From Alteromonas macleodii ATCC 27126 (GTDB lineage: Bacteria > Pseudomonadota > Gammaproteobacteria > Enterobacterales > Alteromonadaceae): 64,000 bases of DNA. The notes under the pieces were generated by a model. It was not told where the DNA came from. It did no database searches and worked only from the letters and a program-made list of their open reading frames with translations. Shown here piece by piece: positions 29,679 through 47,134 of this stretch. The position numbers were made by a program, and so were the translations under genes. The stretch spans positions 1,364,001 through 1,428,000 of the forward strand of contig NC_018632.1 of NCBI RefSeq assembly GCF_000172635.2. The letters run 5' to 3'. Within the stretch, counting starts at the first letter, position 1. Each line of letters opens with the position of its first letter.

Positions 29679-30058
29679 TAAATGAGAAATTTAGCTTATT
29701 TATGTTGGTCAATTACGCCATTAAATTCGTGGAGCATTTAAAAACGTAAGGGCGGGATGTCACTACAAAGCGTTTGACTAATGAGGTAATTCGGAACAAG
29801 CCTCACTGTCGATTAAAAATTGTGCTATCCCTATGCACTATTGCCATTCAGTCATGCTCATTCGCTTCGAATCTACCCTAGATTAAAGTATTATTCGTTA
29901 TTACTTGCGCTATTACGCTTGAGTTGCTAAAAAGTCAATGACGTTAAAGAAATATAGAAAAAGCTGGTTGTACAATAAAGTTTACATGCAGATTGCACAC
30001 TCTTTTGGCGTTTAATTTTTCGTTTTTTATTTGTAGTTAAGAGAGTAAGAGAGCTCCC
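29679..30058 (+). other. Regulatory region upstream of aroF
   Basis: No gene is seen in these 380 bases. The right end carries a strong TyrR-box match (29969-29986). The start codon of aroF is preceded by AAGAGAG. The region is A/T-rich and also holds the start region of the divergent crotonase gene. Confidence 0.5.
29969..29986 (+). promoter_or_regulatory. TyrR box upstream of aroF
   Basis: TGTACA-ATAAAG-TTTACA matches the TyrR consensus TGTAAA-N6-TTTACA at 11 of 12 fixed positions. TACAAT inside it (29971-29976) could be the -10 of the aroF promoter, so TyrR with tyrosine would block polymerase. A TyrR gene is not in the window. Confidence 0.72.
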
Positions 30059-31147
30059 ATGATCAAGGACACCGTAAATAATGTTCACGTAAGTACCGAA
30101 GATGTACTTATAACCCCTGAAGCGCTTAGTGCTGAATTGCCTGTGTCAGACAAAGCGTTAGCGGCTATCTCTGAGTCTAGAAAGATTGTTTCAGATATCA
30201 TTCATCGTCGCGACCATAGATTGCTTGTAGTGTGTGGACCATGTTCTATACACGACGTTGAAGCCGCGAAAGAGTACGCACTTAAGCTTAAAGAGCTTCA
30301 TGAATCATGCAAAGACACACTATTTATCGTTATGCGTGTGTACTTCGAAAAGCCGCGTACCACAACAGGTTGGAAAGGTTTAATTAACGACCCGCATATC
30401 GACGGTACATTTGATATTGAAACAGGTCTTCGTAAGGCAAGAGAGTTGTTAATTTGGCTTGCAGAATTAGAGCTGCCTGTTGCAACAGAAGCACTGGATC
30501 CAATTAGTCCACAATATCTTGCTGAGCTATTTAGCTGGGCTGCTATCGGTGCGCGTACCTCTGAATCGCAAACCCACCGTGAAATGGCCAGCGGCCTGTC
30601 TATGCCTGTAGGATTCAAAAATGGTACAGATGGAAGCCTAGATATTGCCATAAACGCCCTTAAATCGGCGGCATCGGGTCACCGCTTTATGGGAATCAAT
30701 AAGCAAGGCCAGGTAAGTATTATCGGGACCAGCGGTAATCCAGATGGCCACATTATTTTGCGCGGTGGAAAGCAGCCTAACTACGACTCGGTTTGCGTAT
30801 CAGAGTGCGAGATTGAGCTGCAGGATGCTGGTTTAACAGCGGGCTTAGTAGTAGATTGCAGCCATGCAAACTCTTCAAAAGATTATCGCCGTCAGCCATT
30901 GGTTGCACAGAACGTGGTCAATCAAATTCTAGAAGGCAATCAGTCTATCATTGGCGTTATGTTGGAAAGTCACTTGAAACCGGGTAATCAAAAAGCTGAA
31001 GGTAAAAAGCCAGAAGAACTTGAGTATGGTGTTTCAATCACAGACGGATGTATTGATTGGGAAACAACAGAGAACTTAATATCTCAAACCAGAGATAAGT
31101 TAATAACTGTGTTACCCTTACGCCAAAATAAGCGCACGGTGGCATAA
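30059..31147 (+). CDS. aroF: Class I DAHP synthase (3-deoxy-7-phosphoheptulonate synthase)
   Basis: The enzyme condenses phosphoenolpyruvate with erythrose 4-phosphate, the first step of aromatic biosynthesis. The 362-residue protein has RRDHRLLVVCGPCSIHD, VMRVYFEKPRTTTGWKGLINDP and LDPISPQY of type I-alpha enzymes, and metal ligands in CGPCS, ESQTH, MLESHL and SITDGCIDW. It is the first gene of a probable operon with tyrA, 75 bases downstream. The TyrR box upstream and the partnership with tyrA indicate the tyrosine-sensitive isoenzyme AroF rather than AroG or AroH. Confidence 0.93.
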   Translation: MIKDTVNNVHVSTEDVLITPEALSAELPVSDKALAAISESRKIVSDIIHRRDHRLLVVCGPCSIHDVEAAKEYALKLKELHESCKDTLFIVMRVYFEKPRTTTGWKGLINDPHIDGTFDIETGLRKARELLIWLAELELPVATEALDPISPQYLAELFSWAAIGARTSESQTHREMASGLSMPVGFKNGTDGSLDIAINALKSAASGHRFMGINKQGQVSIIGTSGNPDGHIILRGGKQPNYDSVCVSECEIELQDAGLTAGLVVDCSHANSSKDYRRQPLVAQNVVNQILEGNQSIIGVMLESHLKPGNQKAEGKKPEELEYGVSITDGCIDWETTENLISQTRDKLITVLPLRQNKRTVA

Positions 31148-31222
31148 ATCCAAGCAACGCCTAAAGTGGCAAGAAAAATTTGCCAATAAGCCCCGTGCCA
31201 TTTGATTCAAGGATAAGACAGA

Positions 31223-32377
31223 ATGGCCGATTTATCGCAGCACTTAAAAAAGTTAGATACGCTGCGTGAAGGTATCGACGAGCTGGATACCCAGCTTGTC
31301 GAATTACTCGCAAAACGCAATCAAATTACAACCCAGGTCGGTCAAATTAAGGCTGAAGCTGGTATGCCCGTTTATGTACCAGAGCGTGAAAGAGCGTTGA
31401 TCGCATCCCGCCGTGCTCAGGCAGAAGCACTTGGGGTGTCGCCCGATCTCACCGAAGACTTATTACGTCGAGTAATGCGAGAGTCTTATCACACGCAAAA
31501 CAACAAATATCGCTGTGTGAAACCTGATGTCGACAACGTTGTTGTAATTGGTGGAGCAGGGGCACTTGGCCGTGTGTTTGTGAGCTTGTTCGAACGAAGT
31601 AATTACAACGTTTCAGTTGTTGAAAAAGACGACTGGGAAAGTGGTAGAGCAACATCGTTATTAAGCTGTGCTTCACTGGTTGTTGTTGCAGTGCCTATTA
31701 ATCTAACCGAAGCCGTGATTAGCAAGCTTACTATGCTGCCAGAGGATTGCGTGCTTGCAGATATAACCAGTATTAAAGCTAAGCCACTTGAGGCGATGCT
31801 TGCCGCACACAATGGTCCGGTTGTTGGACTGCACCCCATGTTTGGTCCTGACGCGCCTGGCATGATTAAACAGGTAGTGGTAGTGTGCGACGGACGTGGC
31901 AGTGAGAAATACAGTTGGCTCATTGAGCAAATGCGAATTTGGGGTGCTACCATTCACGACTCCAGCGCGCAAGAACATGACCAAGCCATGGTTTATATTC
32001 AGGTAATGCGTCACTTCAACACGTTTGTGTACGGGCAACACTTAAAAGGTGAAGATCCTAATCTGGAATCACTCACCATGTTTAGCTCACCTATTTATCG
32101 TTTAGAACTCGCAATGGTAGGCAGGTTATTCGCTCAGTCACCACAACTTTATGCCGATATTATTTTCAATAACCCTGATAACTTTGCACTTCTACGTCGC
32201 TTTTACGAACGTTTTGGGATTGCATTGTCATTACTTGAGAATGGCGACAAAAAAGGCTTTGTAGAACAGTTCATGAAGGTCGGCGCGTGGTTCGGAGATT
32301 ATGCGAAGAAGTGTTTAGTAGACAGCAAACAGATGTTGTTAAAAGCGGATGATGGTCAGCTTTTAAGAGACAAGTAG
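31223..32377 (+). CDS. tyrA: T-protein: chorismate mutase/prephenate dehydrogenase
   Basis: This bifunctional 384-residue enzyme makes 4-hydroxyphenylpyruvate from chorismate. Residues about 1-90 are an AroQ chorismate mutase ([23 protein letters not shown]). Residues about 100-370 are prephenate dehydrogenase with the Rossmann motif [13 protein letters not shown] and [12 protein letters not shown]. It follows aroF in the tyrosine operon. No terminator separates it from the pepsin-type protease gene 45 bases downstream, so that cluster may be co-transcribed. Confidence 0.96.
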
Positions 32378-32422
32378 TTTTGACCGACTGTTTATAGCGA
32401 TAGCTAATTTAAGGTAGCCAAC

Positions 32423-33715
32423 GTGACTCGCTCTCTTCGTTTGCCAATTACCAATACTTTCGCTGATGGCGGCTATTGTGTGAGAGCACATATAGGCGCG
32501 CATCAGCAGACCGTTCATCTTATTTTAGATACGGGAAGCTCAACCTTAGTGCTAGGCGACATTCATTATCATGTTGAACGTGATGGTGATGTGAGGTTCA
32601 CCTACTACTCTCAATCAATTAAATATGCTGCAGGAAGTTGGCATGGCCCTGTTGTTAAGACCACGGTGCGCCTGGGCATTTTCGGTCACAGCATTTCGTT
32701 GCCGCAAACTTATGTAGCAATAGCGAAAGAATCGCAAGAGACAAAAGAATCTTGCTTTAAAAAAGCTGACGGAATTATGGGGTTAGCTTATCAACCGCTA
32801 AATCACGCCTATCGTTGCACTGACAAAATTACGTGTGAAATGAGCGAGCAAGCGATTTTTGAAAAAGCGTTGGCCGAGCCTAACGAGTCAGCAATTATTA
32901 ACCTAAAGACAGCTGATTACGTTGCGACCACACTCCCTAGCTACTTTTCTGAGTTAGAGCAGCGTCAAATTAACGCCGATAAATTCGCTTTTTGGCTACA
33001 TCGCTCAAGCGTCTATAACGTAGATGGAAATTGTCTTCGCGCTGCGCTTGCACATAGAAAAAATCATGGCCTTTTTGTAATAGGTGAGCCTATTTTTCAT
33101 CGAGACTTATACGCTCCTCCTATTAGGTCTGTGAAGGTACTCCACGATAAGTATTATAACGTCACGTTAAAAGCCGTAAAATGTGGAGAAAACGAAGGCA
33201 TTAAAGCGCCAGCTTTGGATAAATCGGACGAAGCACGCTGGTGTTCAAATGCGATAGTAGATTCAGGAGCAACGGTGATTGGTTTGCCAGAATCTTTGTA
33301 TAACGAAGTGATCGAGCAGATTTTTTCCTGTGTTGATAACGCGAAAACATTGCTTGAGCCCTTCGCTGCTTTCTCTTTAGAGGAGCAAGGAATAGACTTG
33401 GAAAAGCTAGATTTGGCACAATGGCCTGAACTAACGTTTGTTCTTGAAGGCGATGAGGGTGAAGATGTTTTACTCTCGCTACCACCTGAAGCCTACTGGC
33501 AGGAGCACGCCCCCACATTTAACCAAGCGTCCTTTAAAATATTCCCATTAAAACACTGGCCGAATCAAAGCATCCTCGGTCTTCCGCTGATCTCTCAATA
33601 CTATACAATTTTTGACAGAGGACAGGGCACTAATGGTGTTGTATCGTTTGCACGAAAAGTGACATTGAGTGATACGGTTGACGCGCTTAAACATGTTTTT
33701 GATAAAAACAGCTAA
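32423..33715 (+). CDS. Pepsin-like (A1 family) aspartic peptidase
   Basis: This 430-residue protein has both halves of a pepsin fold: LILDTGSSTLVLGD with catalytic Asp36 and AIVDSGATVIGLPESLY with catalytic Asp280. The flap segment YAAGSWHG is followed by TTVRLG, as in pepsins. Such A1 peptidases are common in eukaryotes and rare in bacteria; bacterial relatives are known from Shewanella (shewasins). The GTG start has AAGG upstream. There is no signal peptide or propeptide, so the enzyme appears to be cytosolic and made in active form. It is 28 bases upstream of the peptide-methyltransferase-like gene and may process a peptide made there. Target is unknown. Confidence 0.85.
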   Translation: MTRSLRLPITNTFADGGYCVRAHIGAHQQTVHLILDTGSSTLVLGDIHYHVERDGDVRFTYYSQSIKYAAGSWHGPVVKTTVRLGIFGHSISLPQTYVAIAKESQETKESCFKKADGIMGLAYQPLNHAYRCTDKITCEMSEQAIFEKALAEPNESAIINLKTADYVATTLPSYFSELEQRQINADKFAFWLHRSSVYNVDGNCLRAALAHRKNHGLFVIGEPIFHRDLYAPPIRSVKVLHDKYYNVTLKAVKCGENEGIKAPALDKSDEARWCSNAIVDSGATVIGLPESLYNEVIEQIFSCVDNAKTLLEPFAAFSLEEQGIDLEKLDLAQWPELTFVLEGDEGEDVLLSLPPEAYWQEHAPTFNQASFKIFPLKHWPNQSILGLPLISQYYTIFDRGQGTNGVVSFARKVTLSDTVDALKHVFDKNS

Positions 33716-33743
33716 AACCTAATAATAAGAAAGGAACAGTTAC

Positions 33744-34514
33744 ATGCAACAAGGCAGCCTAGTATGTGTCGGAACCGGGATGATGGTTGGAGCGCATTTA
33801 TCGCCTATTTGTCAAAGTCATATTGAGCAAGCCGACGTCGTTTTCGTATGTGTAGCTGAGCACTACATGGAGGCATGGATCACCTCTTTGAACAAAAACA
33901 CAGTAAACCTACAAACTTTCTATGGTGAAGGCAAAGATCGCCACGATACCTATGCTCAAATGACTAGCGCAATGCTAGAGCGTGTGGAGAAAGGCGAAAA
34001 AGTAGTTGGCGCTTTTTATGGACACCCTGGGGTTTTTGCAAAGGTGCCTCATGACGCTATCGCAATCGCTAAAAGTCGAGGGTTTGATGCTTACATGTTG
34101 CCGGGGATCTCAGCTGAATCGTGCCTATACGCCGATTTGGGCATAGACCCAGGTGCTCTAGGTTGCCAACACTACGAGGCAAACCAGTTTCTACTATATA
34201 AACGAGAAGTAGATACGGCTGCGTATTTAGTTTTATGGCAGGTTGGGGTTGCAGGAGATTTCTCAAGTGCCGTTTTTACCTCCAGCTCTCTTCAACGAAA
34301 AAAGCTTACTGATAAACTGTTATCTATTTACCAAGCGAATGACAGCGCTATTTTATATGAAGCTGCAACCTTGCCCATCGATGAGTTCAGAGCTACGACG
34401 ATTGCTATTGGTGAACTGCATAATCACGAAATTAACCAGCACTCTACACTTGTCATACCACCAGTTAGTAAACCAGTGATAGATGATGTCGATTACTCCA
34501 AAGGTACTAACTAG
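33744..34514 (+). CDS. Tetrapyrrole-methylase-fold SAM methyltransferase, borosin (peptide N-methyltransferase) type
   Basis: The 256-residue protein opens with GSLVCVGTGMMVGAHLSPI, the SAM-binding start of the tetrapyrrole-methylase fold. YGEGKDRHDTYAQM, FYGHPGVFAKVPH and LPGISAESCLYADLGIDPG follow. The last three resemble, from memory, stand-alone backbone-N-methyltransferases of split borosins (Shewanella SonM) rather than CobA/CysG or RsmI. Those enzymes methylate amide nitrogens of a separate precursor peptide. GAAAGGAAC precedes the ATG. Its TAG shares a base with the GTG of the downstream acetyltransferase. No corrin or haem genes are near, which supports a peptide role. Confidence in the fold is high and in borosin function moderate. 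Confidence 0.72.
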   Translation: MQQGSLVCVGTGMMVGAHLSPICQSHIEQADVVFVCVAEHYMEAWITSLNKNTVNLQTFYGEGKDRHDTYAQMTSAMLERVEKGEKVVGAFYGHPGVFAKVPHDAIAIAKSRGFDAYMLPGISAESCLYADLGIDPGALGCQHYEANQFLLYKREVDTAAYLVLWQVGVAGDFSSAVFTSSSLQRKKLTDKLLSIYQANDSAILYEAATLPIDEFRATTIAIGELHNHEINQHSTLVIPPVSKPVIDDVDYSKGTN

Positions 34515-35017
34515 TGCAGTTCGCTACACCTCGTTTTACCAGCGCTTTACTTTGCCAGCAGTGGAAAGAGGAAACAGCAAGCTTGTACCAAAATAGAAAA
34601 GTTATGCGATTAATAGGTGAGCCCCTTTCTGAGAAGGAAAGTGAAGTAGTCGCTAGTACTTTCATTGAAGCAAACAAAAGGCCTTGGCCAGCACAGAAGG
34701 TCTGGTCGATAACGTGTAATCAAACGCAGGCATTTTGTGGAATTCAGATGCTTTGTAAAAGCGTTTTACAAGACACTGCAGAGATTGGAATTATATTAGC
34801 GCCTTCAATGAACGGAAAAGGCGCGGCACGAGAAGCGATGGGCGCGCTAGTCGAATTTGGCTTGGAAAATCTAAATCTTCACCAAATTGTTGCCCAATTT
34901 GAAAAGCGTCACCTCGCTACAAAACGTCTAGTTACCCAATTAAACTTCAAACAGTCAAAGGACAGCCGTTTTCAGCCAAGTAAAACCAACTTGGTCACAT
35001 ATACCTTTAATCGCTAG
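34514..35017 (+). CDS. GNAT-family acetyltransferase
   Basis: The 167-residue protein shows the N-acetyltransferase pattern: MRLIGEPLSEKE near the N-terminus, FCGIQMLCKSVLQDTAEIGIIL as central strands, GKGAAREAMGALVEFGLENL as the acetyl-CoA pyrophosphate-binding region, and ATKRLVTQLNF near the end, as in RimJ/RimL-type enzymes. The GTG start overlaps the methyltransferase stop by one base, so the two are translationally coupled. In this context it may acetylate the modified peptide or confer self-protection; that is inference. Confidence 0.75.
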   Translation: MQFATPRFTSALLCQQWKEETASLYQNRKVMRLIGEPLSEKESEVVASTFIEANKRPWPAQKVWSITCNQTQAFCGIQMLCKSVLQDTAEIGIILAPSMNGKGAAREAMGALVEFGLENLNLHQIVAQFEKRHLATKRLVTQLNFKQSKDSRFQPSKTNLVTYTFNR

Positions 35018-35091
35018 AATATTTGGTTACATCATACCTAATAAACCAGTAAGTATTTCTGTTTTCAAAGGTAATTGATGCAAATAGTAAC

Positions 35092-35100
35092 TGGTATAAT
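35092..35100 (+). promoter_or_regulatory. Extended -10 promoter before the 70-residue protein
   Basis: TGGTATAAT (35092-35100) is an extended -10 (TGN plus TATAAT). No good -35 lies 17 bases upstream, as is usual for extended -10 promoters. A leader of about 80 bases precedes the ATG at 35189. Confidence 0.6.
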
Positions 35101-35188
35101 ATGTCTAAAATTCTATATATTTGATTAACAACTCATCAAATAGTTGCTAACCTATTAAACATTAATAACTATAAAGTAGAACAAACTC

Positions 35189-35401
35189 ATGAAAGCGCTA
35201 AAAGAACTTCTCGCTATTGCACAAGATGCATCTAAGCAACGTGACACTGATGTAATTGCACAATTTAAAGCTGACCACGCAGACGAACTTTCTCAAGAGA
35301 AAGAAAAAATGTGGTGTCTTTTGATGCCAGAAGATGAAGAGCAAGACGCGCCTGGTGATGTACAAGAGAGTGAAGAAAAGAACCAAGTGTCACTTCACTA
35401 A
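35189..35401 (+). CDS. Small acidic protein, candidate precursor peptide
   Basis: The 70-residue protein has an N-terminal amphipathic helical part (MKALKELLAIAQDASKQRD, then VIAQFKADHADELSQEKEK). It continues with a short hydrophobic patch MWCLLMP (about 41-47) and a strongly acidic tail ending NQVSLH. It has no signal peptide. Its own extended -10 promoter suggests high expression. A helical leader plus a distinct C-terminal segment is the general plan of split borosin precursors, and it lies 171 bases past the methyltransferase-acetyltransferase pair. No family is recognised with certainty; an unrelated regulatory small protein is equally possible. The diguanylate cyclase gene starts 18 bases later. 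Confidence 0.6.
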   Translation: MKALKELLAIAQDASKQRDTDVIAQFKADHADELSQEKEKMWCLLMPEDEEQDAPGDVQESEEKNQVSLH

Positions 35402-35418
35402 CCCTGATAGTTTAAATT

Positions 35419-37179
35419 GTGGTTAGGTTTTTAATAGGGGCGTTACTTTGCCCCTTTTTCATATTTCCGCTTTCTGCTGACGAAATTGATCAGCAGTTGG
35501 TGCGCGCTGATGCACTTCGCAGTCAAGACGTGGAGGCGTTTCGTACGTCATTGTCGGCTCTCAGTAATAAATCAGCCTCCTTTTCACCGGCCCAAGTCCA
35601 ATACTTTAACTATCTCAATGCTTATAGCTTATCGTATTCAGGAAAACTCATAGAGGCAGTTCCACTTTATGAAAGTGTGTTTCAAAGTGCTTCAGATAAA
35701 TCGTTACAACTACGAGCCAAAAATTCAATTCTCAACAACTACGCGTTAGTTCGGGATTTTCCCAAAGCACTTCAGCAAATTCCTGATATTGTTCCTCTAC
35801 TTTCGTTAGCGAAAGATAAAGATAAGCACCTTTCAATTTTGACGATTGCGCTTTTTTATAATCAGTTGGAAGAGTTTGAGCAGAGTTTGCAGTACAGTGC
35901 TCGCGTAATTGGACAAGAGCTTTCTTCCCGCAATGCGTGTCTGGCTCACAATCTGCGTAGTGAGTCGCTGCACAATTTAGGACGACTTGACCGAGAAACG
36001 CTAAATACAACTATTGAGGTATGTAATGCGAGTAAAGAGCCAATCGCTCTGAATCTAGCAAAATTATGGCTTGCTCAACTGATGTTAGCATCGCCAGACA
36101 GTATCGCAGGGGCGTTAGACGCCTTACTTGCTATCCAAGCAGATGTTGAAAGTACTAACTATCCACGATTAACGTCAGAGTACTATACAGCGCTAGCACA
36201 AGCCTATTTTGCCAATAAGCTCTTTCATAACGCACAGGAGAGTGCGCTTAAAGGCGCGGAGCTTGCAAAAGGCATGGGATATTCAAAACCCAGAAAAACG
36301 GCATATTATATACTGTACCAGTCGGCAATAGAGAAAGGGGATAATGCACAAGCATTAGATGCATTTATTCAATACGCTGAGGCTGATAAAGCGTACCTTG
36401 ATGAGTACAACGTTAAGCAAATGGCGATTCAACAGGCTAAGTTCGATAACCTCGAGAAGAATATCGAAATTCAGCTACTGGACAAAGAGAATAGCCTACT
36501 GAAAGCACAAGCAGCCCTTTCCCGAGAAGAAAAGCAAAATCACAGGCTGTTGATAACATTGCTTGCTTCCACCACGATACTTGTCCTTATGTGGGCAATA
36601 ATAAATCGTAAGTTACATGCAGCACTTAGGGAAAAGGCGCAAACTGACTCGTTAACAAAAGTGGCGAACCGTCACTATTTTACTGAGTTGGCATCGAAAG
36701 CGCTTGATCGAATGTCAGAGCAGCAGGACGTATTATCTTTTGTAATTTTTGACCTTGATCACTTTAAGTCAGTTAACGATAGCTACGGTCATCCAACAGG
36801 CGATTGGGTATTAAAGGCAGTAGTTAACGCGGTGAGGAAACACTGCAGAAAAGAAGATGTTTTCGGGCGCTTAGGTGGTGAGGAGTTCGGCCTACTATTA
36901 CCAGGGTGTAATGAGAAAAAAGCAAAAGAAATAGCGGAATGTATGCGCAATAGTATCCGTCAAATTGATACAGCTGAAAGCGGTTTTACCTTCGATATTT
37001 CAGCAAGCTTTGGTATCTCCAGCACTGCGTCATCAAAGTATCAATTCGAGGCGCTGTATGCCAATGCCGATGAAGCTTTGTATGGCAGTAAAAAGCATGG
37101 CCGCAACAGAGTTTCTGTCTTTCAGGTTAATGGTGAAAGTGACGTTGGTAATGTAGGGCAAGCCTTTCAGCCTGCCTAA
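35419..37179 (+). CDS. Membrane-bound diguanylate cyclase with periplasmic TPR-like sensor
   Basis: The 586-residue protein starts at a GTG. It has a signal peptide (about 1-20) and an all-helical TPR-like periplasmic region (about 20-340). A transmembrane helix follows (ITLLASTTILVLMWAIIN, about 375-393), then a cytoplasmic GGDEF domain (about 410-570). The active site is GGEEF, a functional variant, and FDLDHFKSVNDSYGH is intact. It would synthesise c-di-GMP in response to a periplasmic signal. An RxxD inhibitory site is not evident. It probably shares the promoter of the upstream 70-residue protein. Confidence 0.87.
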   Translation: MVRFLIGALLCPFFIFPLSADEIDQQLVRADALRSQDVEAFRTSLSALSNKSASFSPAQVQYFNYLNAYSLSYSGKLIEAVPLYESVFQSASDKSLQLRAKNSILNNYALVRDFPKALQQIPDIVPLLSLAKDKDKHLSILTIALFYNQLEEFEQSLQYSARVIGQELSSRNACLAHNLRSESLHNLGRLDRETLNTTIEVCNASKEPIALNLAKLWLAQLMLASPDSIAGALDALLAIQADVESTNYPRLTSEYYTALAQAYFANKLFHNAQESALKGAELAKGMGYSKPRKTAYYILYQSAIEKGDNAQALDAFIQYAEADKAYLDEYNVKQMAIQQAKFDNLEKNIEIQLLDKENSLLKAQAALSREEKQNHRLLITLLASTTILVLMWAIINRKLHAALREKAQTDSLTKVANRHYFTELASKALDRMSEQQDVLSFVIFDLDHFKSVNDSYGHPTGDWVLKAVVNAVRKHCRKEDVFGRLGGEEFGLLLPGCNEKKAKEIAECMRNSIRQIDTAESGFTFDISASFGISSTASSKYQFEALYANADEALYGSKKHGRNRVSVFQVNGESDVGNVGQAFQPA

Positions 37180-37221
37180 ACATTACAACGAAAGAAAGTA
37201 AACACTGGGGCGTGTGCTGGC

Positions 37222-38403
37222 TTAATCAGCCAGCGCACTCGCCGCGGCCACTTTGGTCGGGCTAATTTCTTCGCTTGGATAGCAGCCCAATACTTTGATG
37301 TAGCGGGTAATACCACGCAATGCATCAAGGGCATTTTGTACAGGGCCATCTTCTACGTTGCCTTCTACATCAATGTAGAACATTTCTTCCCACGGATTAC
37401 CTGGAATAGGACGCGATTCAAGCTTCGTCATATTGATGCTGTTCTCTCGTAGCACCAACAAGGCCTCTACAAGTGCACCTGGCTTTTGGATGGTAGACAT
37501 AACAAGTGTTGTCTTAGCTGGAACTTGAAGTGGAACCACTACTGGGTTGCGCGCAACAACGATAAAACGGCTATGGTTTTCTTTTTGGTTTGCTAAGTTA
37601 CTCTTTATAGCCATTAGGCCGTACAAGTTACCACCCGCTTCGCTGCCTATTGCGGCTACGTCATCGCGTTTAAGCTCACTAACTGTCAACATGGCAGACG
37701 AGGTGCTGTCCATGGTTTTCACTTCTACGTTCCCTAGTTCTGCTAAGAAATGGCTACACTGAGTGAACACTTGAGGGTGAGCGTAAAGCGTTTTGATTTT
37801 ATCGATACTGGTGTTGGTTCCCACTAACAATGTATGGCGGATAGGGTGGGTGAGTTCACCAATAATACTAAGTTGGGTATGCTGTAGCTGGTCATATACT
37901 TCATTGATACTGCCAGACGTCGTGTTCTCAATAGGCAATACCGCGTAATCGGCTTCTGTACTTTCAACTTTGTGAATAATTTCAGCAAAGCTCTGACAGC
38001 CAATTTCCAGCAATTCGCCTGGGCGACGAGAGAAGTACTTTTGCGTTGCTAGATAAGAGTAAGAGCCCTTATCGCCCAAGAATGCCACTCGGTTTAAAGG
38101 CAATGTACTGCCAGGGTTAGCGCGTTCAGCAAGCATAGCCTGCTGGTTTAAAACAGAGTCTTCAATAATAACGTGGAAAATTTGCGTCACATAATGAGGG
38201 TCTAAGCCAATGTTTTGGCCTTCTTTTATTAGGCGCACCAATAGCTGTTCTTCTCGCTTTTGATCTCTCACAGGAATGTGATGCTTTATTTTCGTCTCAG
38301 CCACTTCGTTGGTTAACTTTCTGCGTTCTGAGAGTAAAGTAAGTAATTCACTGTCTAAAGCGGTAATCCGCTCTCTAACAGTATCTAATGCATTGTCTGA
38401 CAT
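37222..38403 (-). CDS. pheA: P-protein: chorismate mutase/prephenate dehydratase
   Basis: This bifunctional 393-residue enzyme makes phenylpyruvate. Residues about 1-95 are chorismate mutase (LDSELLTLLSERRKLTNEVAETK), and about 105-285 prephenate dehydratase (VAFLGDKGSYSYLATQKYF, TADYAVLPIENTTSGS). The C-terminus is an ACT regulatory domain (KPGALVEALLVLRENSINMTKLESRPI, ending NPWEEMFYIDVEG) that binds phenylalanine. The ATG at 38403 is chosen. The frame extends upstream through the attenuator hairpin, but that extension is not expected to be translated. It is controlled by the pheL attenuator and a promoter at 38557-38585. Confidence 0.95.
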   Translation of the reverse strand: MSDNALDTVRERITALDSELLTLLSERRKLTNEVAETKIKHHIPVRDQKREEQLLVRLIKEGQNIGLDPHYVTQIFHVIIEDSVLNQQAMLAERANPGSTLPLNRVAFLGDKGSYSYLATQKYFSRRPGELLEIGCQSFAEIIHKVESTEADYAVLPIENTTSGSINEVYDQLQHTQLSIIGELTHPIRHTLLVGTNTSIDKIKTLYAHPQVFTQCSHFLAELGNVEVKTMDSTSSAMLTVSELKRDDVAAIGSEAGGNLYGLMAIKSNLANQKENHSRFIVVARNPVVVPLQVPAKTTLVMSTIQKPGALVEALLVLRENSINMTKLESRPIPGNPWEEMFYIDVEGNVEDGPVQNALDALRGITRYIKVLGCYPSEEISPTKVAAASALAD

Positions 38404-38439
38404 ATCATTCCCGTGCGTATCGTATAAGAAAATTCTGTT

Positions 38440-38466
38440 AAAAAAAAACCTCCCAGTTGGGAGGTT
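38440..38466 (-). terminator. Attenuator terminator upstream of pheA
   Basis: On the minus strand, AACCTCCC and GGGAGGTT (38459-38466 with 38447-38454) pair around AACT and run into nine U residues. It lies between the Phe leader peptide and pheA. A GGGAGG right after the leader stop (about 38484-38489) can pair instead with CCTCCC of the terminator arm, giving an antiterminator. Confidence 0.9.
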
Positions 38467-38489
38467 TTCATGCATGTAGCCGCGCCTCC

Positions 38490-38549
38490 CTAGTTAAAGG
38501 ATATAAACGCAAAAAAGAAAAGTGCTACGTGCATAATATTCTGTTTCAT
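38490..38549 (-). CDS. pheL: Phe-rich leader peptide PheL
   Basis: The 19-codon frame MKQNIMHVALFFFAFISFN has five Phe codons in its second half and stops just before the antiterminator segment. The peptide FFFAFISF closely recalls the E. coli PheL pattern. When charged tRNA-Phe is scarce, ribosomes stalled on the Phe codons would allow the antiterminator to form. The predicted transcript starts within a base or two of this ATG, so either the peptide is leaderless or the second ATG at residue 6 is used. No ribosome binding site is visible for either. Confidence 0.8.
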   Translation of the reverse strand: MKQNIMHVALFFFAFISFN

Positions 38550-38556
38550 AGGTTTG

Positions 38557-38597
38557 AATGTATGTTGAACGCCTATGTGTGTCAACCCATTTTTACA
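38557..38597 (-). promoter_or_regulatory. pheA promoter with overlapping TyrR-box-like sequence
   Basis: A perfect -35 TTGACA (38580-38585) and -10 TACATT (38557-38562) are separated by 17 bases. The -35 forms the right half of TGTAAA-AATGGG-TTGACA (38580-38597), an 11-of-12 match to the TyrR box, so a TyrR-like protein could repress this promoter. Chance overlap is possible because TTGACA itself supplies five matches. Confidence 0.65.
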
Positions 38598-38652
38598 AAT
38601 TGAATAGTTGTTTTTAATGTGGGGGACTTGAAAAAGTAATTAAAATGCGCTG

Positions 38653-43024: not shown

Positions 43025-45096
43025 GTGTTTAGAACGTTGAAAATCCCAATTGGGCTTGTCATTGCATTGACGATGTCGGTGCTGGCGCTCTCTGTGGTAA
43101 TTGTTAATAAATTAGAACACAACGCTTCTGTGGTGGATGTGGTTAAGGGCAATACCGCGACGTTAAGTAACGCTTTGTCGCTGCAGTTATCGGTTGTCAT
43201 GGAGCGAAGTCCCGGTGATAACGCATTATTTTCCTCTCTTTTCAACCGATAAAAGAACACGATAATCTTATTTCCGCCACGCTATATGACAACGACTATC
43301 AAGTCATTTCCACTATTCAACCTGATTCCTTAAGCCAGCTTTCCAATCAATCTGTTCCACTTGATCCTGCAGAAATTCCATTTGGTGTTACGCAATACGA
43401 CAATGTTATCACTGCCCATCAAATTGTAGGTAGTAGCCTATACCCACTTGGACATGTTGTTCTTTATGTGGATATTGAAGACACCATGGCGGCAAGTTCA
43501 GCCCGCCAGCTCATTAAGCAAGTGCCTATCGTTATCGCGGTTTGGCTGCTTTGCACTGGCACTTGTGTCTTTATTTTATACCGTTTGATTTCTCCTATTG
43601 GGTCGCTGAGGCAGTTTACTCAAGAAGTATTTGAGTCAAAAGATTATGCGCTGCGCAGTTCACTTAATACATCTAATGAAATTGGACAGTTATCGAATAA
43701 CATTAATAGTTTATTGGATACCATTGAAGTTGAGTTACTCATCAACTTTGAGCAAAAGCAAACATTGGTTGATCAACAAGAAACCATGTCTCGTCTGGCA
43801 AACTTCGATAGCTTAACCGGTCTTCCCAATCGACAGTTTGTTCTCGATAACTTAAGACTTGAGCTAGCCAGAGCCAAAAGAAATGATGAAGACTTACTGC
43901 TCCTGTTTTTTGATTTAGATGGGTTTAAGGGCATCAATGATTCTTTAGGACATGAAACCGGAGATCTCATTCTCATAGAGGTTGCTGACAGAGTTCAGTG
44001 TTTGCTGCGCGACGGCGATTTATTCGCGCGACTGGGAGGGGATGAGTTCTTAGTACTGCCCGATAGAGATGTGACTACTGACCAAGCGCAAAGCTTGGCA
44101 ACGCGACTTATTACCGCATTTGATGAGCCTTTTGAACTGCGTGGCTTATCACTAACGGTAGGTTTAAGCGTTGGAATCGCTACGGCTTCCGATGCGGGCT
44201 ACGACCTAAGCGAGCTGATGAGCAATGCAGACCTTGCAATGTATCGTTCAAAAGCGCGAGGGCGGGGCAGCTACACACTGTTTACACCTGATATGGTTGA
44301 GTCGCACAAGCGTAAACTCCACTTAGCTAACGGTATTGAGCAAGGAATCAGCAACGATGAGTTTGTTGTTTATTACCAGGTTAAAGTTAACAACGAAGGG
44401 AACGTAATCGGCGTAGAAGCGCTTATTCGTTGGCAACATCCTGAATTTGGCTTGGTCATGCCGAACGAGTTTATCCCCATTGCTGAGCAGGGCGGTAAGA
44501 TCACTGCAATTACCCGTTGGGTAATTAAGCGCGTTTGTATTGATATGCCAGATTTAAAACAATGGGCCACGTCTCCGTTTAGAGCCTCAATCAATTTATC
44601 TGGACATGATTTGCGAAGCTCGCAGCTGTTTGACTACATCTACAATACTTTCAAGCTCTATGACATCAACCCAGAAAACATTGAATTTGAAGTGACAGAA
44701 AGTGCGTATCTAGAAAACTTTACTCTTTCAAACAAGTTCTTCAGACGCATCGGAAATATGGGGTGCGCCATAGCTCTAGATGATTTTGGAACGGGTTACT
44801 CCTCGTTAAGTTACCTGACGCAAATCAATATCGACACGCTAAAAGTTGACCGACAGTTTGTAATGGAAATTCAAACTTCAGAACGAAGCCGTCTTGTGAC
44901 TGGGGCAATTATTGATTTGGCGAAAAGACTGTCACTCTCGGTATGTGCTGAGGGCATAGAAAACCTTGAACAGTGGAATTATCTTAGAGAGCATGGATGT
45001 GACAATGTGCAAGGATTTATGTTTAGCAAGCCCATCCCCTTATCGGAGCTCACTTGCTCTCCCTCCCATTATAGCGATAGTAGTTTCTCTGTATAG
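43025..45096 (+). pseudogene. Membrane GGDEF-EAL c-di-GMP enzyme, interrupted by one frameshift
   Basis: Residues from 43025 (GTG, FRTLKIPIGLVIALTMSVLA) form a first transmembrane helix and a periplasmic segment, but the frame stops at 43252. Reading one base earlier from the CTTTTC run at 43238-43243 continues as SSLFQPIKEHDNLISATLYDN into the main frame. That frame has a second helix (VPIVIAVWLLCTGTCVFI), a HAMP-like linker, GGDEF (LGGDEFLVLP near 44030) and an EAL domain with EALIRWQHP and DDFGTGYSS. The whole protein would be about 690 residues. One T missing from a T5 run explains the break. The downstream part alone may still be translated from an internal start at 43468. Confidence 0.85.
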
Positions 45097-45736: not shown

Positions 45737-47134
45737 TTGGTACAACTTGGTTCACTAAGGCAGTTGACGCTAGGTAGTTTTGTACTGGCCCTTATCCCTC
45801 TTATAGCCTTACTTTGGCAAAGTCAAAGCGACTTAGCCAAAGTGGGTCAAATGACAACACTTGAAACACGGTTTGTTGTCGATGTTGTTAGCGACATGCA
45901 AAGACTCGATAACGCGGTCGTTGACGTAGAGCGCAGCATTCGCCAATTTGCTGTGTTGAGAAATGATAGGGTGGCCTCTCTTTCTGATAACGCCATCGAT
46001 CAATTTGCCGTGGCCGCTGACAATCTATGTCAGGCTCTCTCGGTACCAACTACCTGCACACGACTTTCAGAACAGCTAAATCAATTAGCCGAATATCGAG
46101 CGATTGAAGACCAGCTTTTACTTAATGCATACCTTGCGTCAGTGGGCGATAGCGTCGACCAGCTTCGCGACGATGTAGAAGCCGCTATTACTGAACGTGT
46201 CAAAGTCCAGCAAGATGATTTAAATGCCATGCAAGCAAAACAAGCTTGGTCTACAGCTATGCTTGTAAGCGTTTCGTTATTGCTAATACTGATGGGGAGT
46301 CAACTTATTGTGAACCCCGTTAACAACTTAAAAAAGATTATAAGGATCATGGCCCACAGCGATGGTCAGCTTCCACCCCTTTCAAGACAAGCGCCAAAAG
46401 AACTGATTGATGTAGAGAAAGATTTACATTGGCTTTATGATCGACTACAGCAGTTGGAGCATATTAGAACCGCCTTGCTGCGACACGCTGCTCACGAGCT
46501 TAAAACTCCGCTTGCCAGCATTAAAGAAGGCTGCAGCTTGTTGTCTGAAAACGTGGTGGGCGAGTTGAATAACAGTCAACGCGAAGTACTTTCGCTACTT
46601 ACTGCTAGCACGCAAAGGCTCAACACGCTGGTGGAAAAGTTGCTCGACTACAACCTGCTGTTGCAACAAGCTCAGCCAAAAATGGTACAAAGTGACGTTA
46701 GTAAGTTAGTTTCTGCTTGTTTAGAAGATTACGCGCTCGCCATTCAGGATAGAGAAGTGGAAGTAAAGATAACTGCGTCCGAGGTGCGTATAGACGAGGA
46801 GCTGTTTAGAAGAATACTTGATAACTTGGTGTCCAATGCGGTCGCGCATGGCGCAGTGGGAAGACCGATAAATATTAGCCTTTATAACGAAAACGATAAT
46901 CTTGTACTGGATGTTGCCAATCGCGGTAAGCGTATTGCTCCAGAGTCAGTACATACTTTATTTGAACCTTTTATCCGAGGAACCGAGCCGAGAAACGACA
47001 ATGTCATTGGGACGGGTTTAGGGTTATCAATTGTTGCCGATTGCGCTCGACTGATGCATGGTGATGTGCGTGTTGTAGATGTAGACTATGCCGATGTTTG
47101 CTTTAGAGTGACCATTGGGCAACAGGAAAAATAA
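45737..47134 (+). CDS. glrK: Sensor histidine kinase GlrK (QseE)
   Basis: GlrK senses envelope conditions and phosphorylates GlrR. The 465-residue protein has TM1 (LGSFVLALIPLIALLW), a periplasmic domain (about 35-170), TM2 (AMLVSVSLLLILMGSQLIV), a HAMP linker, the H-box HAAHELKTPLASI with phosphorylated His near 255, an N-box LVSNAVAHG and G-box GTGLGLSIVADC. No ATG is in frame near the start: TTG at 45737 or CTG at 45707 are candidates. GAGGGTAAGG just upstream fits the CTG better, and the extended segment reads INKVSFGERL. It starts the glrK-qseG-glrR operon. Confidence 0.88.
   Translation: MVQLGSLRQLTLGSFVLALIPLIALLWQSQSDLAKVGQMTTLETRFVVDVVSDMQRLDNAVVDVERSIRQFAVLRNDRVASLSDNAIDQFAVAADNLCQALSVPTTCTRLSEQLNQLAEYRAIEDQLLLNAYLASVGDSVDQLRDDVEAAITERVKVQQDDLNAMQAKQAWSTAMLVSVSLLLILMGSQLIVNPVNNLKKIIRIMAHSDGQLPPLSRQAPKELIDVEKDLHWLYDRLQQLEHIRTALLRHAAHELKTPLASIKEGCSLLSENVVGELNNSQREVLSLLTASTQRLNTLVEKLLDYNLLLQQAQPKMVQSDVSKLVSACLEDYALAIQDREVEVKITASEVRIDEELFRRILDNLVSNAVAHGAVGRPINISLYNENDNLVLDVANRGKRIAPESVHTLFEPFIRGTEPRNDNVIGTGLGLSIVADCARLMHGDVRVVDVDYADVCFRVTIGQQEK

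What the first reader, a model, noticed from the sequence alone, without database searches (positions are those of the whole stretch)
32423..35401. Candidate split-borosin RiPP locus: pepsin-type protease, peptide N-methyltransferase, GNAT and small acidic protein
Seen: an A1 aspartic protease without signal peptide, a tetrapyrrole-methylase-fold enzyme with VGTGMM, YGHPGVF and LPGISAES motifs, a GNAT enzyme overlapping it by one base, and a 70-residue protein behind its own extended -10 promoter. Known: split borosin methyltransferases (for example Shewanella SonM) act on a separate precursor with a helical binding domain and resemble this enzyme. Inferred: methylation, acetylation and cleavage of a small peptide by one locus. 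Pairing a pepsin-like protease and a GNAT with a borosin-type enzyme is, as far as I know, not described.
Basis: partly seen in the sequence, partly recalled or inferred. Interest (0 to 1): 0.88.

Follow-up and report, generated by a model that had tools for sequence, protein, structure and literature searches.

The report
Borosin operon with bacterial pepsin
A marine bacterium carries a conserved gene set that probably makes a chemically capped small peptide with its own pepsin-like protease and may use it to control a signalling enzyme, which would give the puzzling bacterial pepsins a job.

Summary
Observation confirmed; split-borosin reading supported. The enzyme at 33744-34514 is a borosin alpha-N-methyltransferase (MT): best solved relative SonM, 224 bits; best NCBIfam model YabN, 35 bits. 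In the genus all 10 pepsin genes found stand beside such an MT; in Shewanella 39 of 40, including loci identified as shewasins A and D, studied bacterial pepsins. In a named scan 55 of 80 pepsin loci hold the MT, 55 of 55 on the same strand. Stand-alone pepsins exist too (Kangiella genus 0 of 11). Most likely mechanism: core N-methylated, precursor trimmed by the cytosolic pepsin, acetylated by the GNAT, product sensed by the cyclase. Pathway membership is strongly supported by neighbourhood; every chemical step and the signalling are inferred. Key borosin papers could not be read, so parts of the neighbourhood may already be in print.

The parts
32423..33715 (+). A1 pepsin-like aspartic protease (shewasin relative), 430 aa, no signal peptide, GTG start
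   Evidence: PF00026 E 2.5e-18; DTGS 36, DSGA 280, no hydrophobic segment; beside a borosin MT in 10 of 10 genus copies
33744..34514 (+). split-borosin peptide alpha-N-methyltransferase, 256 aa
   Evidence: SonM 224 bits, dbOphMA 184 bits; Y60, R66, Y70, Y92 invariant in the 15 homologues aligned of 60 held; R66/Y92 at SonM R67/Y93
34514..35017 (+). GNAT acetyltransferase, 167 aa, one-base overlap with the MT stop
   Evidence: PF13302 E 6.7e-16; one sister locus (L035) encodes MT and GNAT in one ORF
   Evidence: TGGTATTAT in L033; a match to a consensus, function untested
35125..35153 (+). second promoter-like element TTAACA-N17-TAACCT with TG extension, 44 nt before the precursor start
   Evidence: TGnTAnnnT roughly 44-64 nt upstream in 11 of 12 type-A loci, window included; function untested
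35189..35401 (+). borosin precursor, 70 aa: leader about 1-39, hydrophobic core KMWCLLMP (40-47), acidic tail
   Evidence: K-x-W-C-x-x-x-P in 13 of 13 type-A precursors, this one included; third-position bias; 19 database homologues, the 11 aligned nearly fixed over residues 1-50
35419..37179 (+). membrane sensor diguanylate cyclase, 586 aa: signal-like segment 1-19, TM 377-395, GGEEF with RxxD I-site; sensor of the TPR family by its homologues
   Evidence: GGDEF E 1.8e-43; segments and motif; homologue downstream on the same strand in 36 of 36 genus loci of types A and B

Best explanation
This is a split-borosin RiPP operon with its own protease, acetyltransferase and signal-output gene. Steps: (1) the 70-residue precursor is made, perhaps from its own promoter; (2) its leader binds the methyltransferase, which N-methylates the backbone of the hydrophobic core around KMWCLLMP; (3) the cytosolic pepsin (shewasin type) cuts the leader and/or acidic tail off; (4) the GNAT acetylates the new N-terminus or a lysine; (5) the peptide reaches the periplasmic sensor domain of the co-encoded cyclase and changes c-di-GMP output. 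Shown here: homology of each part, real coding of the precursor, and repeated co-occurrence on one strand across many genera. Inferred: every chemical step, their order, and step 5. My split confidences: MT plus 70-residue protein is a borosin pair 0.93; pepsin and GNAT are dedicated parts of the pathway 0.8; cyclase senses the product 0.5.
For: MT to SonM 224 bits; best NCBIfam models 35 bits or less. K-x-W-C-x-x-x-P in 13 of 13 type-A precursors. A profile of 37 precursors of the class (of 49; mostly short-leader ones left out, the window not in it) has SonA as its first seven PDB hits, best E 7e-4, residues 1-56 on the SonA binding domain. Pepsin with MT in the fetched region: genus 10 of 10; rest of family 31 of 33, up to 7.7 kb apart; Shewanella 39 of 40, the other at a contig end; named scan 55 of 80, of which best MT on the same strand 55 of 55, within 2.6 kb 47, cyclase 54, GNAT 50. 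These sets overlap and must not be added. Natural MT-GNAT fusion. In the genus pepsin occurs in 10 of 12 type-A and 0 of 24 type-B loci. Sensors downstream in the genus: GGDEF in 36 of 36 type A/B; a protein of 929-1106 residues in 23 of 24 SonA-like loci, the other cut by its contig end, five of 23 scanned and all five TPR-type hybrid histidine kinases; sensor halves homologous, E 5.6e-21. Shewasin D is mainly cytosolic and both shewasins prefer hydrophobic sites with Asp or Pro at P4' (PMC4814920, passages).
Against: No methylation, cleavage or acetylation was observed. Stand-alone pepsins of the same family exist (25 of 80 named loci without MT, at least 3 of them contig ends; Kangiella genus 0 of 11), so the protease family has at least one other role, and on the tree MT-linked pepsins are not one clade. 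Shewasins work best at about pH 3.5-4.5, odd for a cytosolic maturase. The window's leader is short (about 39 residues against 53 in SonA); a profile that included it found SonA only at E 0.43, and profile-profile comparison with SonA-like precursors gave nothing. The sensor domain is periplasmic by sequence, yet I saw no exporter gene recurring in the gene lists (I did not search for one). The window's own sensor has no TPR hit in Pfam. Two type-A loci (L039, L047) lack the pepsin. No structure model could be had.
Confidence: 0.72

Rival explanations
1. Turnover switch: the methylated precursor itself, uncut, is the regulator of the cyclase, and the pepsin destroys it (for example on cytoplasmic acidification) rather than maturing it.
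For: Acid optimum and a proposed latent cytoplasmic form of shewasin D (PMC4814920, passages); pepsin missing from 2 of 12 type-A loci and from 24 of 24 type-B loci, which keep MT and cyclase and a precursor-like ORF.
Against: RiPP pathways normally need leader removal (established knowledge); N-methylation should protect the core from the protease (inference).
Confidence: 0.18
2. The operon makes an antimicrobial or toxic borosin; the cyclase only times its production.
For: Omphalotin A, a fungal borosin, is nematicidal (PMC11285071, passage).
Against: A homologous kind of sensor with swapped output domains follows the precursor in the genus loci (36 of 36 type A/B, 23 of 24 SonA-like), which points to signalling; I saw no recurring exporter or immunity gene, but did not search for one.
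Confidence: 0.1
3. Pepsin and GNAT are passengers placed by chance beside a MT-precursor-cyclase unit.
For: Stand-alone pepsins exist; gene order varies between genera.
Against: Same-strand association in 55 of 55 named loci with both, spread over Alteromonadaceae, Colwelliaceae, Shewanellaceae, Pleioneaceae and Lysobacteraceae; the MT-linked label changes 8 times on the pepsin tree against 21.6 in shuffles (which near-copies alone can lower); MT-GNAT fusion.
Confidence: 0.04
4. The enzyme is an ordinary tetrapyrrole, RsmI or diphthine-type methyltransferase.
For: Same fold family PF00590.
Against: NCBIfam best YabN 35 bits (cut-off 525), CobA type 17.5 bits (cut-off 185) against 224 bits to SonM; active-site residues invariant.
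Confidence: 0.01

Closest known systems
Split borosin SonM-SonA of Shewanella oneidensis (type IV)
   Same: Separate alpha-N-methyltransferase and short adjacent precursor; active-site residues; SonA-like leader in the wider precursor class
   Different: MT falls outside the group of SonM and the genus's own SonA-like loci; core is W-C-x-x-x-P plus acidic tail; pepsin and GNAT added; output gene is a cyclase, while the genus's SonA-like loci have a hybrid histidine kinase where scanned
Shewasins A and D and other bacterial A1 pepsins
   Same: A1 family, DTG/DSGA motifs, no signal peptide; loci identified as those of shewasin A and D lie in the same kind of operon
   Different: The two papers seen contain none of the words operon, methyltransferase, acetyltransferase or GGDEF (word searches in PMC4814920 and PMC2761423)
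Omphalotin-type fused borosins (OphMA)
   Same: Methyltransferase domain 171-184 bits for OphMA and dbOphMA
   Different: There the core is fused to the enzyme; here the precursor is separate
Sensor diguanylate cyclases with periplasmic TPR domain
   Same: Signal-like segment, one TM, GGEEF with I-site; TPR in 17 of 34 homologues
   Different: Co-encoded with a RiPP precursor and its methyltransferase

Membership tests
Split borosin | stand-alone alpha-N-methyltransferase homologous to SonM/OphMA | tested here: met
   224 bits SonM, 184 dbOphMA
Split borosin | conserved active-site residues | tested here: met
   Y60, R66, Y70, Y92 invariant in 15 of 15 aligned; R66/Y92 = SonM R67/Y93; the catalytic role of these positions in OphMA is recalled
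Split borosin | short adjacent precursor gene | tested here: met
   70 aa, conserved and coding
Split borosin | borosin binding domain in precursor leader | tested here: inconclusive
   class profile without the window hits SonA E 7e-4; first profile with the window only E 0.43; hhalign no support; window leader is shorter; structure job was interrupted
Split borosin | backbone N-methylation of the core | not testable with these tools
   needs mass spectrometry
Borosin type IV (SonM group) | MT groups with SonM | tested here: not met
   SonM and 8 genus SonA-like rows form one side of a branch (SH-aLRT 84, long branches) apart from 56 pepsin-class rows; quick tree
Borosin types V-X | their published definitions | not tested
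   defining papers not held
A1 pepsin / shewasin | two D-T/S-G motifs, second followed by Ala | tested here: met
   DTGS 36, DSGA 280; Ala noted for marine homologues in PMC4814920 (passage)
A1 pepsin / shewasin | pepstatin-sensitive acid protease | not testable with these tools
   needs enzyme assay
GNAT | GNAT domain above curated cut-off | tested here: met
   PF13302 59.7 bits, cut-off 25.4
TPR-sensor diguanylate cyclase | GGDEF domain with intact signature and I-site | tested here: met
   E 1.8e-43; RKEDVFGRLGGEEF at 477
TPR-sensor diguanylate cyclase | TPR sensor | tested here: inconclusive
   no TPR hit in the window protein itself; TPR_12 in 17 of 34 scanned homologues; profile aligns to the TPR sensor of SonA-like loci
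Corrin / YabN-type methylases | score above family cut-off | tested here: not met
   seven NCBIfam models at E up to 0.1, best 35 bits against cut-off 525

The most novel reading that the evidence does not exclude
Borosin peptides of marine gammaproteobacteria are signals: a conserved TPR sensor module, with interchangeable outputs (diguanylate cyclase or hybrid histidine kinase), is the dedicated receptor of an N-methylated ribosomal peptide, and the bacterial pepsins known as shewasins are the maturation proteases of one branch of this system, the first aspartic proteases in a RiPP pathway.
Probability: 0.4. Interest if true: 0.9.

Novelty: new variant of a known kind. Interest (0 to 1): 0.77.

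Why it matters
Shewasins A and D have been purified and profiled for cleavage specificity, but I know of no natural substrate; if this is right, their substrate is the small protein encoded beside them, which can be tested in a test tube. It would add aspartic proteases to the proteases that mature RiPPs: a 2023 review of such proteases contains none of the words aspartic, aspartyl or pepsin (PMC10885120, word search). It would also give bacterial borosins, whose function is open as far as I know, a role in c-di-GMP and phosphorelay signalling.

Tried and rejected
Ordinary tetrapyrrole-type methylase: rejected by scores. SonA homology by hhalign of A5 against A6: no support; a larger precursor profile then gave SonA at E 7e-4. 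Pfam and NCBIfam on 37 precursors: scattered weak hits only, best E 0.0025, no family in more than 4 of 37. Rfam over 30000-38600 at gathering scores: nothing. Structure prediction of sensor and precursor: both jobs were interrupted, no model. Literature: Imani 2022, Cho 2022 and Crone 2023 not held; no paper linking pepsin and borosin appeared in the listings, several of which show only the best 10-15 of more papers. Cleavage-site prediction from the published shewasin preferences was considered and left out because the numeric matrix was not available.

Rows dropped or chosen before counts: of 61 strong genus MT matches, 60 were analysed and the 61st later as L334 (no pepsin hit, its downstream gene not examined); two matches of 20 bits were ignored. 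Of 43 family genomes with pepsin hits, 4 with fragments of 19-29 bits (G206, G271, G349, G355) were not fetched and 6 were genus members already counted. In L153, L154 and L291 the counted pepsin is only a fragment. From the named scan 90 relatives were confirmed but only 80 kept by the tool. The pepsin tree left out L196, whose frame the script missed. The MT tree used 12 of 12 type A, 13 of 24 type B, 8 of 24 SonA-like loci plus SonM, and 44 other rows. A3 holds 15 of 60 genus MTs, A7 37 of 49 precursors, A8 34 cyclases, A10 11 of 23 kinases. Precursors outside the genus were picked with a pattern built from earlier ones, so the 43 of 55 named loci with a precursor are not independent of the motif; 12 gave none. 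The GNAT of L037 is split over two ORFs.
Full report
What is there. The window lies at 1364001-1428000 of a 4.65 Mb single-contig genome. Between a chorismate mutase-prephenate dehydrogenase gene (tyrA, 31223-32377) and a gene on the minus strand that reads like pheA (37222-38475; name from the sequence, not scanned) sit five genes on the plus strand: a pepsin, a methyltransferase, a GNAT, a 70-residue protein and a GGDEF protein.

The methyltransferase. Against solved structures its first hits are SonM (224 bits, E 1.6e-65), then dbOphMA (184 bits) and OphMA (up to 175 bits). Seven NCBIfam models of YabN, siroheme and corrin type reach 12.6 to 35 bits with cut-offs of 163 to 603. Residues Y60, R66, Y70 and Y92 are invariant in the 15 homologues aligned; R66 and Y92 stand at SonM R67 and Y93. 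PMC8429565 has a section headed by R67 as critical for clamp and core conformations and mentions Y93 (passages).

The precursor. The 12 type-A loci of the genus, window included, gave 13 precursors, all with K-x-W-C-x-x-x-P followed by an acidic tail. Of 19 database homologues, 11 full-length ones were aligned with the window: residues 1-50 are nearly fixed while the tail drifts; P0001 (97% identical) was left out and 7 are partial or differ at one end. Base changes against L033 fall on third codon positions (25 of 35). In other genera the leader is mostly longer and reads, in Shewanella, like MSNIIQLLERMGQDAxLQ; the core is usually xCxxxPAEDDE. A profile of 37 of 49 such precursors, without the window's and most short-leader ones, finds SonA as its first seven PDB hits (E 7e-4 to 2.3e-3), aligned over the borosin binding domain. 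An earlier 19-row profile that included the window gave SonA only E 0.43, and hhalign gave no support, so the binding-domain claim is moderate, and open for the window's own short leader.

How far the set goes. In the genus 52 of 59 genomes hold a borosin methyltransferase. The 61 strong matches fall into three classes by downstream gene and precursor: type A (12 loci, K-x-W-C precursors), type B (24 loci, precursors with xEPxxP-like cores) and SonA-like (25 loci). Pepsin stands in 10 of 12 type A, 0 of 24 type B and 0 of 25 SonA-like loci; a separate profile search found exactly those 10 copies in 59 genomes. A GNAT is present in 12 of 12 type-A loci: ten by similarity (one of them fused to the methyltransferase, one split over two ORFs), two upstream of the pepsin by Pfam. 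Elsewhere in the family 31 of 33 pepsin loci fetched have MT and cyclase, 30 a GNAT hit. In Shewanella the pepsin occurs in 40 of 129 species and stands with the MT in 39; the fortieth is at a contig end. In the named scan 55 of 80 loci have the MT, 55 of 55 on the pepsin's strand, 47 within 2.6 kb, 54 with cyclase and 50 with GNAT. These sets overlap in species and are not to be summed. On the pepsin tree the window lies in a 10-row clade that is entirely MT-linked (100/97); the MT-linked label as a whole is not one clade and changes 8 times against 21.6 in shuffles.

Shewasins. The two pepsins are 55.5% identical, as stated for shewasins A and D (55%; PMC4814920, passage), and the L304 protein has its catalytic aspartate at residue 37 (counted from the start methionine in the translation), as in the published D37A mutant. 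Both loci carry the GNAT, the MT, precursor genes (three in tandem in L304) and the cyclase. So the characterised bacterial pepsins appear to be parts of borosin operons. The two papers on bacterial pepsins that I searched do not use the words operon, methyltransferase, acetyltransferase or GGDEF.

The output gene. In the genus a GGDEF protein follows on the same strand in 36 of 36 type A and B loci. In SonA-like loci a protein of 929-1106 residues follows in 23 of 24 examined, the other being cut by its contig end; the five of these 23 that I scanned are hybrid histidine kinases with TPR or TPR-like sensors. The sensor halves of both kinds align over 427 columns including coil and membrane segment (E 5.6e-21), although repeats can inflate such scores; the window's own sensor has no Pfam TPR hit, 17 of 34 homologues do. 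The same genome's second borosin locus (3201349) is of the kinase kind. One sensor module with two outputs beside one kind of peptide pathway is the best argument for signalling, but it is an argument from neighbourhood only.

Mechanism and limits. The published specificity of shewasins (hydrophobic around the cut, Asp or Pro at P4', no Pro at P1) and their cytosolic place (passages) fit a hydrophobic core followed by proline and acid residues, in general terms. The acid pH optimum and the absence of pepsin from type B and SonA-like loci speak against a general need for it; the turnover rival stays open. Acetylation rests on the GNAT's presence and the fusion alone. The MT class differs from the SonM group on a quick tree, so I do not file it as type IV. 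Whether it equals one of types V-X could not be checked, because the papers that define them were not held; a legend in PMC11395268 shows that a GGDEF domain has already been noted in at least one borosin architecture.

Papers seen: PMC8429565, passages and sections 6 and 7; PMC11395268, passages and sections 3 and 28; PMC4814920, passages; PMC2761423, word search only; PMC10885120, word searches and passages; PMC11285071, passages. Imani 2022, Cho 2022 and Crone 2023: nothing beyond their entries in reference lists.

Verdict. Observation confirmed; split-borosin reading supported; the combination with a dedicated pepsin, GNAT and sensor cyclase is a new variant of a known kind as far as the searchable library goes, and it gives the shewasins a directly testable substrate.

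Noticed in passing
L078 (own genome C1:3194000-3210000): Second borosin locus of the same genome: MT, SonA-like 68-residue precursor and a 1070-residue TPR hybrid histidine kinase in a row.
   Followed up: partly
   Followed up: partly
L304, 2.7-3.4 kb downstream of the pepsin: Three tandem precursor genes with different core ends in the locus identified as that of shewasin D.
   Followed up: no
L047, L041: L047 carries two precursor plus cyclase cassettes after one MT and no pepsin; L041 has a cyclase remnant between MT and precursor.
   Followed up: no
L043 and L047, upstream of the cluster: A large membrane protein gene directly upstream on the same strand; in L043 it is a methyl-accepting chemotaxis protein (HAMP, MCPsignal), in L047 it only looks alike.
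   Followed up: partly
L187 and L276: A second borosin methyltransferase on the opposite strand just upstream of the pepsin (L187 is Aliikangiella marina).
   Followed up: no
L153, L154, L291: Pepsin reduced to fragments while MT, GNAT and cyclase hits remain: apparent loss of the protease from the operon.
   Followed up: no
window 30059-38475: The operon sits between the DAHP synthase/tyrA pair and a pheA-like gene; several sister genomes hold their type A operon beside the same genes.
   Followed up: partly
window 43468-45096 and 45737-47134: A GGDEF-EAL protein and a sensor histidine kinase; the cyclase profile has 52 matches in this genome.
   Followed up: no
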